From contig NZ_CP070950.1 of NCBI RefSeq assembly GCF_017084525.1, positions 2,728,001 to 2,792,000 of the forward strand: a stretch of DNA of 64,000 nucleotides. Direction: 5' to 3'. Below the pieces are notes generated by a model. The model did not search any database. It saw nothing but the letters and a program-made list of their open reading frames with translations, and was not told the origin of the DNA. Position numbers and translations under genes: made by a program. Of this stretch, positions 13,734 through 26,326 are shown in pieces. Numbering within the stretch: the first letter of the stretch is position 1; each line of letters begins with the position of its first letter. This stretch comes from Conexibacter sp. SYSU D00693. GTDB lineage: Bacteria > Actinomycetota > Thermoleophilia > Solirubrobacterales > Solirubrobacteraceae.

Positions 13734-14882
13734 TCAAGCGGAGGCGGGCGCCGGCGCCAGGTCGCGCGCCGGGTCGATCCCCCACCGCTCGGCCAGCGCC
13801 TCGAGCTCGGCGTCGAGCTCCCAGCGGTCGGGCAGCGCGTCGCCGGCGTGGTCGGGCGCGGCGCCCTTCAGCGTCATCGACCCGGTGTTGTCGCCGATGG
13901 CGCGCACCTCGTCGACCTCCTCGGCGCTGAGCGGCGAGGGGACCGTGACGGCGGCGAGCTCCTCGCGCTTGGCCTCGACCGGCTTGGCGTCCTCGCCCGC
14001 CTCCTGGATGAGGGTCGGCACGACGGTCCGCACCGGCTCGTGGGCGAGGTTCCAGGCGCACGCGAGCTGGAGGGGCGAGAGGCCGTGGCGCTGTGCGATG
14101 GGCGCGAGCCGATCGAGCTTGGCCGCCCCCGCCTCGACCCAGCCCTGGGGGCGGAAGCCGCGGTGGTCGTAGCGCGGGAAGTCGTGGCCCGGGCGCACGT
14201 CGCCGTGGAAGATCCCGCCGTAGTCGACGACGCGCGTGATGAGCTGGACGTCGTGGCGCTGGGCGGCGGGCAGCACGAGCTCGCCGGGCCACGGCTCCAG
14301 CGGGTTGAGGATCACCATCGCCCAGTCGATGAGCGCGCCGAAGCGTTCGAAGCAGGCGATGACGTCGAGCGTGAAGCCGTTGGCGGGGCCGGGCGCGACG
14401 CCGAGCATCCGCGTCAGACCGGCCTCCTTGAGCCCCGCCATGCCCTCCTCCCACACCGCCGGGTGCGTGTAGCCCGTGCGGTCGGGGTTGTGGAGGAGCA
14501 GGAGGTCGAAGCGGTCGGCGCCCAGGCGCTCGAGGCTCGCCTCGGTGGCGCGGCGCAGGTAGGCGGCGTAGCCCTCGGGGCCGCGCAGCCGCGGGTCGGT
14601 GAACCGCGGGAAGCCCTTGGCCCCCTCGCGCTCGCCGTCCACGAAGTCGTGGCCCACGGCCCCGACGAGGCAGTAGGCGTCGCGGTCCAGGCCCTCGAGC
14701 GCGCGGCCCAGGACACGGTCGGCCTCGCCCTGCCCGTAGGTGTCGGCGGTGATGACCGTGCGGATGCGCTCGTCGGGCCGCAGGAGCGCGACGAGCCGCT
14801 CGTCGTCCACGGGCTCGCCGAAGTGCATGAAGCGCCCGCCGGACCAGGTGCCGAGCGCCGTCGTGGTCGGGTCCAACGCCAT
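13734..14882 (-). CDS. Aldo/keto reductase
   Basis: A 382-residue NADPH-dependent (beta/alpha)8 oxidoreductase. Recognisable parts are the strand with D and Y (TADTYGQGEADRVLGRAL), the RFDLLLLHNPD strand, and LSPLQLACAWNLAHEPVRTVVPTLIQEAG, which forms the C-terminal cofactor-binding region. A C-terminal tail of ~60 residues (from GAAPDHAGDALPDRWELD) is longer than in the core family. It stands alone, divergent from the lipoprotein gene at 14907. Substrate unknown. Confidence 0.87.
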   Translation of the reverse strand: MALDPTTTALGTWSGGRFMHFGEPVDDERLVALLRPDERIRTVITADTYGQGEADRVLGRALEGLDRDAYCLVGAVGHDFVDGEREGAKGFPRFTDPRLRGPEGYAAYLRRATEASLERLGADRFDLLLLHNPDRTGYTHPAVWEEGMAGLKEAGLTRMLGVAPGPANGFTLDVIACFERFGALIDWAMVILNPLEPWPGELVLPAAQRHDVQLITRVVDYGGIFHGDVRPGHDFPRYDHRGFRPQGWVEAGAAKLDRLAPIAQRHGLSPLQLACAWNLAHEPVRTVVPTLIQEAGEDAKPVEAKREELAAVTVPSPLSAEEVDEVRAIGDNTGSMTLKGAAPDHAGDALPDRWELDAELEALAERWGIDPARDLAPAPASA

Positions 14883-25893: not shown

Positions 25894-25966
25894 GCCCCCA
25901 TGGTGTAGCGGTCAGTCACGCAAGCCTTTCGAGCTTGAGGCGAGGGTTCGACTCCCTCTGGGGGTG
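25894..25966 (+). tRNA. tRNA-Glu(TTC)
   Basis: Acceptor GCCCCCA pairs with TGGGGGT (first pair G-U), the anticodon stem CAAGC / GCTTG carries loop CTTTCGA with anticodon TTC, and the T arm is GAGGGTTCGACTCCCTC. Discriminator G. The D stem is weak (three pairs), as is common in tRNA-Glu. CCA is not encoded. It lies 23 nt before the intron-containing tRNA-Lys and may be co-transcribed with it. Confidence 0.9.
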
Positions 25967-25988
25967 CTGCGGTCGTAGACTCCCGCGC

Positions 25989-26326
25989 GGGCCGGTAGCT
26001 CAACTGGCAGAGCAAGGGACTTCAACGCAACGGAGCGCTAGCTGGGAGACCACTAGTACGTCGGCGGCTGTGTGCTGGGACCCCCTTAGAGCCCCGGGTA
26101 CCAGAGGCCTCGCGCCTCGGTGACAACCCCGCGGGATTGGGAAATCAGCAGGCAACCCCACCTCGGTGGGAGAGCCCTCAGAGGCCATACGCCGCCCACC
26201 CTAACGGGGACCGCCGAGGGTGAAGAGATGGTCCAGACCGCAACGCCGCGCGCCCGCGCGGAGGCCGGTGAAAGCCGGTGCGGCAGGTTAATCCCGTGGT
26301 TCTGGGTTCGAGTCCCAGTCGGCCCA
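25989..26326 (+). tRNA. tRNA-Lys(TTT) interrupted by a group I intron
   Basis: The 5' exon (25989-26022, 34 nt) has acceptor GGGCCGG, D arm GCTCAACTGGCAGAGC and anticodon stem AGGGA ending at U34. The 3' exon (26288-26326) starts TTAATCCCG and completes the loop as CTTTTAA (anticodon TTT), then gives T arm CTGGGTTCGAGTCCCAG, acceptor TCGGCCC and discriminator A. Joined, they form a complete 73-nt tRNA-Lys with one poor pair (A27-G43). The intervening 265 nt are the intron listed separately. No other tRNA-Lys(UUU) is in the window, so its function may depend on splicing. Confidence 0.9.
26023..26287 (+). ncRNA. Group I self-splicing intron (tRNA type, IC3-like) in tRNA-Lys
   Basis: A 265-nt element between U34 and U35 that ends in G, as group I introns do. 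Core helices can be read: P3 GGCGGC (26063-26068) with GCCGCC (26191-26196); P4 TGCTG (26073-26077) with CAGCA (26146-26150); P6 GGC (26151-26153) with GCC (26174-26176), extended by CCCACC / GGTGGG; P7 GGCCAT (26183-26188) with ATGGTC (26228-26233); P8 CACCCT (26197-26202) with AGGGTG (26217-26222). The S element AAGAGATGGTCC (26223-26234) and R-like TCAGAGGCCATACG match the tRNA-intron consensus. P1 (exon CUU with GAG 26046-26048) is tentative. No homing endonuclease gene is present. Confidence 0.9.

What the first reader, a model, noticed from the sequence alone, without database searches (positions are those of the whole stretch)
25989..26326. Group I intron inside the anticodon of tRNA-Lys(UUU)
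Two tRNA halves (34 + 39 nt) join exactly into a tRNA-Lys with loop CUUUUAA, and the 265 nt between them hold group I core helices P3, P4, P6, P7, P8 and the S element AAGAGATGGTCC. The intron lies between U34 and U35, the same relative place as the cyanobacterial tRNA-Leu(UAA) intron. Classical bacterial group I tRNA introns are in Leu(UAA), Ile(CAU), Arg and fMet; a Lys(UUU) host in a high-GC actinobacterium is, as far as I know, not among the classical cases. Automated tRNA callers would miss this gene or report a broken one.
Basis: partly seen in the sequence, partly recalled or inferred. Interest (0 to 1): 0.85.

Follow-up and report, generated by a model that had tools for sequence, protein, structure and literature searches.

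The report
Self-splicing intron in lysine tRNA gene

Summary
Window 25989-26326 (+) holds a tRNA-Lys(UUU) gene split between U34 and U35 by a 265-nt group I intron (26023-26287). Rfam Intron_gpI matches at E 1.2e-4 (27.4 bits, below the curated cut-off of 50). Homologues in 12 other genomes raise this to near certainty: same gene, same site, up to 48 bits with Rfam, and compensatory changes in P2, P3, P5a and P8 and in the tRNA stems. All 13 spliced sequences read as tRNA-Lys(UUU). The genome is one contig and has no other tRNA-Lys(UUU). None of the 13 carriers has an intact copy by the pattern that finds one in 109 of the other 219 genomes of the order. Empty sites at the same locus exist within the same genus. 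All reliably named carriers are Solirubrobacterales. One correction: the P4-P6 half of the core resembles rRNA introns of the phylum, not the tRNA introns tested. AAA is a very rare codon here (0.12 per 1000). Splicing itself is inferred, not shown.

The parts
25989..26022 (+). 5' exon of tRNA-Lys(UUU), tRNA positions 1-34 (ends in U34)
   Evidence: joins with 26288-26326 to a tRNA-Lys(TTT) in ARAGORN; conserved in 13 genomes
26023..26287 (+). group I intron, 265 nt, ends in G (omega-G)
   Evidence: RF00028 match 26013-26243, E 1.2e-4; 12 homologous introns; covariation
26288..26326 (+). 3' exon of tRNA-Lys(UUU), tRNA positions 35-73; no encoded CCA
26020..26035 (+). P1: CUUC 26020-26023 with GGAG 26032-26035, U-G wobble at the 5' splice site (U26022-G26033)
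   Evidence: invariant in 13 sequences
26038..26056 (+). P2 hairpin
   Evidence: two pairs with compensatory changes
26063..26196 (+). P3 (26063-26068 with 26191-26196), P4 (26073-26077 with 26146-26150), P5/P5a and P6 between
   Evidence: P3 A-U to G-C in 6 of 13, four compensatory pairs in P5a; P4-P6 resembles rRNA introns
26183..26233 (+). P7 (GGCCAU 26183-26188 with AUGGUC 26228-26233), guanosine-binding helix
   Evidence: invariant in 13 sequences
26198..26221 (+). P8 hairpin ACCCU...AGGGU
   Evidence: one compensatory pair; shared with tRNA-fMet introns L135 and L136
26238..26283 (+). P9 (26238-26241 with 26280-26283) with two inner hairpins
   Evidence: outer stem invariant; first inner hairpin varies in length
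25894..25967 (+). neighbouring tRNA-Glu(UUC); a nearby Glu(UUC) gene marks most tRNA-Lys(UUU) loci in relatives

Best explanation
This is a working group I intron in the only tRNA-Lys(UUU) gene of a Solirubrobacterales bacterium. The precursor is transcribed whole. P1 pairs the end of the 5' exon (CUU) with the guide GAG, so that U34-G marks the 5' splice site. A free guanosine bound in P7 attacks there, the 5' exon then attacks after the terminal G of the intron, and the two halves of the anticodon loop are joined to CUUUUAA. The intron is too short to carry a homing endonuclease, and its removal restores an ordinary tRNA that reads AAA. Shown: sequence, conserved fold, covariation, absence of a second gene, empty sites. 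Inferred: transcription, the splicing chemistry, and its dependence or not on protein helpers.
For: RF00028 match. 13 homologues at the same site, 78-81% identical to the window. 97.3% of cells paired, 13 pairs with changes on both sides, 0 of 500 shuffles as high, control slides at 35-52%. U-G, P7 and final G invariant in all 13. All spliced sequences read as Lys(UUU). No intact Lys(UUU) in the complete genome, nor by pattern in any of the 13 carriers against 109 of 219 non-carriers. Full tRNA inventories of two relatives without the intron each hold an intact Lys(UUU), so the tRNA appears to be normally kept. Empty orthologous sites: G001 beside G000, and G224 beside G060.
Against: Rfam score below the curated cut-off for this copy (27.4 against 50). 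No RNA data. The free-energy fold is only mildly better than shuffled sequence (z -1.6). AAA is so rare that slow or poor splicing might be tolerated.
Confidence: 0.95

Rival explanations
1. A decayed intron in a dying tRNA gene: AAA codons are so rare that the gene is no longer needed, and the insert no longer splices.
For: AAA is 0.12 per 1000 codons and 1.3% of lysine codons in a 10% sample of the genome; this copy has the lowest Rfam score of the Lys introns listed (27.4 bits).
Against: P1, P3, P4, P7 and P8 are intact in this copy; changes in the stems are compensatory, in the tRNA exons too; 17 AAA codons in 16 ORFs of the sample still need a reader.
Confidence: 0.04
2. A chance or wrongly assembled insert between tRNA-like fragments.
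For: None beyond the weak single-sequence Rfam score.
Against: The same structure stands at the same site in 13 genomes of 5 genera.
Confidence: 0.005
3. On ancestry only: the intron is a simple descendant of the IC3 tRNA introns, as in cyanobacterial tRNA-Leu(UAA), and not a mosaic or an rRNA-type intron.
For: Same kind of site and P1 pairing (from memory for the cyanobacterial case); P8 and the following strand match the tRNA-fMet introns L135 and L136 of the phylum.
Against: The P4-P6 stretch and the 5' strand of P7 match rRNA introns (best z 9.2 and 9.4, medians 14.0 and 10.3) and do not match 15 tRNA introns (z about 0) that were found without regard to these motifs.
Confidence: 0.2

Closest known systems
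[quoted passage not shown]
   Same: Small intron in the anticodon loop, U-G at the 5' splice site, final G (general knowledge of the family; met here)
   Different: Host is tRNA-Lys(UUU) in Solirubrobacterales; the P4-P6 half is not of the type seen in the tRNA introns compared here
Group I introns in 23S and 16S rRNA genes of Actinomycetota
   Same: P4-P6 and P7 5' strand close in sequence
   Different: Those compared lie in rRNA, and several hold inserts that look like endonuclease reading frames (seen by eye, not tested); this one has no room for one and has a P2 and a P8 of another kind
tRNA-fMet, tRNA-Asn(GUU) and tRNA-Ile(CAU) group I introns in other Actinomycetota (found here)
   Same: Same phylum, also in anticodon loops
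   Different: Other tRNAs, other P4-P6 type
'Group I intron' in tRNA-Lys(CTT) of Gloeocapsa (PMC5733544)
   Same: Lysine tRNA, anticodon loop
   Different: That insert is given as nucleotides 38-74 and as 49 nt long, too short to hold a group I core; other isoacceptor

Membership tests
Group I intron | Covariance-model match to RF00028 | tested here: met
   E 1.2e-4 for this copy, 27.4 bits and below the curated cut-off of 50; up to 48 bits in homologues
Group I intron | Core helices P3, P4, P6, P7, P8 with the P3/P7 pseudoknot, supported by covariation | tested here: met
   P4, the outer P6 and P7 are invariant and so say nothing by themselves, P3 and P8 covary
Group I intron | U-G wobble at the 5' splice site in P1 and a G as last intron base | tested here: met
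   invariant in 13 of 13
Group I intron | Guanosine-initiated splicing | not testable with these tools
   needs RNA
Subgroup IC3 (tRNA introns) | P4-P6 domain of the type seen in tRNA introns | tested here: not met
   no resemblance to 15 tRNA introns (z about 0), clear resemblance to rRNA introns; formal subgroup assignment not run
Subgroup IC3 (tRNA introns) | P8/P9 region of the tRNA type | tested here: inconclusive
   matches fMet introns, but those were found through this similarity; not significant for P8 alone or P9 with the independent panel

The most novel reading that the evidence does not exclude
The intron is a mosaic: a P4-P6 domain from an rRNA-type group I intron recombined with the P2 and P8-P9 parts of a tRNA-type intron, giving a ribozyme lineage that settled in a tRNA gene not known to host one and spread through Solirubrobacterales.
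Probability: 0.35. Interest if true: 0.65.

Novelty: new member of a known kind. Interest (0 to 1): 0.45.

Why it matters
It adds a lysine isoacceptor to the known hosts of bacterial tRNA introns and shows that standard gene callers leave a genome without its AAA-reading tRNA. With closely related carriers and empty sites, one cultured complete carrier genome (Svornostia abyssi) and a very rare codon as the only target, it is a tractable case for asking how such introns move and what splicing speed a cell tolerates. The wider search suggests that bacterial tRNA introns occur in more tRNAs than the reviews I could read list.

Tried and rejected
Lys(UUU) loss in relatives: my first pattern found no gene in about half the non-carriers, but full inventories of two of them hold an intact Lys(UUU), so the pattern was too strict. 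A second hidden intron in tRNA-Leu(UAA), which is missing from the inventory: no group I hit elsewhere in the genome, no gene at one candidate syntenic spot; left open. Divergent Lys introns in other genomes of the order: model R1 finds only the same 13 strongly, then hits at 50 bits or less; the best of those is a known 23S intron and the rest were not all classified. Phage or plasmid carriage: only tRNA 3' halves in phages, nothing in plasmids. The first segment test was partly circular because its panels were chosen by motif; repeated with panels found by RF00028. A search of papers for the Azoarcus intron sequence found nothing.

Full report
Observation. The sequence at 25989-26326 contains two tRNA halves of 34 and 39 nt. 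ARAGORN by default finds Glu at 25894-25967 and nothing here. RF00028 matches 26013-26243 at E 1.2e-4, 27.4 bits, below the curated cut-off, and is the only hit in the genome. Joined, the halves are called tRNA-Lys(TTT). With its intron option ARAGORN finds the gene ends but names the gene Asn(GTT).

Homologues. A DNA search found the full tRNA plus intron in 5 of 60 other genomes, and in 13 of 232 genomes of the order including this one, in 5 genera of two families. An exact-pattern scan of 84,980 species genomes hit 12 records: Svornostia abyssi J379 (complete), ten records labelled Solirubrobacterales, Solirubrobacteraceae, Thermoleophilaceae or Actinomycetota, and one labelled Bifidobacterium breve whose contig has the length of the carrier contig of G015, a genome of this family, so that label is probably wrong. 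A covariance model of the core finds only these 13 strongly in the order, 155-188 bits.

Structure. I drew P1-P9 and the four tRNA stems on the alignment of 13 and counted pairs. Of 84 pairs, 13 have changes on both sides, 97.3% of cells pair, no shuffle of 500 reaches this, and slid versions fall to 35-52%. P3 has A-U in 7 and G-C in 6 sequences; P5a has four compensatory pairs; P2, P8 and the acceptor, anticodon and T stems have one or two each. P1 (CUUC with GGAG, U34-G wobble) and P7 never vary. Introns are 236-265 nt, begin with C and end with G.

Need for splicing. The genome is one contig; 43 tRNAs were found by RF00005 and typed. Lys(CTT) is intact; Lys(TTT) exists only in split form. 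In the order, an intact Lys(UUU) was found by pattern in 109 of 219 non-carriers and in none of 13 carriers. Among 43 non-carriers that this pattern missed, a looser one matches in 10, and full inventories of two more show the gene. The codon AAA makes 0.12 per 1000 codons in 138,821 sampled, so the tRNA serves a very small but real need.

Locus. In most relatives examined the Lys(UUU) gene lies near tRNA-Glu(UUC), with or without the intron. A shared downstream gene places the intact gene of G001 (same genus) and the split gene of this genome at one locus; G224 (intact) and G060 (split) share several neighbours. These are empty and filled sites. Intron identity is 94-100% within g18 and 97% within g10, but only 84% between the two carriers of g42, of which G060 is closer to g18 (89-91%). 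This hints at transfer between genera, but no host tree was made.

Kinship. In the class, the other RF00028 hits that I classified are in 23S rRNA genes, apart from one contig with four matches beside a phage-like reading frame. In the phylum, tRNA introns appear in fMet and, by reading the exon joints, in Asn(GUU) and Ile(CAU). Against 15 such tRNA introns and 15 rRNA introns collected without regard to motif, the P5-P4-J4/6 stretch scores best z 9.2 (median z 14.0) for rRNA and about 0 for tRNA; J6/7-P7-P3 scores 9.4 and about 0; the stretch from P8 to J7/9 scores 7.1 for tRNA and 3.5 for rRNA by best match, 8.5 and 7.5 by median. The P8 hairpin itself matches fMet introns, but that panel was found through this similarity. 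A mosaic is a fair reading, not a proven one. Subgroup names are from general knowledge.

Literature. In the papers held, a review of bacterial group I introns does not mention lysine. A 2014 review lists cyanobacteria and alpha- and beta-proteobacteria as bacterial hosts of tRNA introns. tRNAscan-SE 2.0 reports 36 genomes whose fMet or Ile2 gene is hidden by such introns. One paper claims a group I intron in cyanobacterial tRNA-Lys(CTT), but of at most 49 nt. Subscription papers and intron databases could not be searched, so 'not reported' is limited to this library.

Noticed in passing
L183-L194 and L207 (other Actinomycetota genomes): Group I introns in what read as tRNA-Asn(GUU) genes (loop CUGUUAA, split after GGCUGU) in several genera; a host I did not find in the papers searched.
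   Followed up: partly
L195, L200: Group I introns in tRNA genes with a CAU anticodon that look like tRNA-Ile2.
   Followed up: no
L135, L136, L177, L182: Group I introns in tRNA-fMet of Actinomycetota (L135, L136) and of a viral contig (L177); L182, a viral contig, has one in a gene called tRNA-Thr(UGU).
   Followed up: partly
L065 (G154:C223): Four group I intron matches within about 2 kb beside what looks like a phage-like protein reading frame in a relative's genome.
   Followed up: no
G000 whole genome; L315 12900-14300: No tRNA-Leu(UAA) gene found; TTA is 5 of 138,821 sampled codons; the gene is absent from one syntenic spot. Loss or a missed gene.
   Followed up: partly
L314 about 14837-14870: A partial copy of the tRNA-fMet 3' half about 5 kb from the intact gene, like the attachment site of an integrated element.
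   Followed up: no
L197, L199, L205: Group I introns that appear to lie near the 3' end of 16S rRNA genes in Actinomycetota.
   Followed up: no
L098 (CAMCUD010000009.1): A public contig labelled Bifidobacterium breve carries the Solirubrobacterales intron and is probably mislabelled.
   Followed up: no
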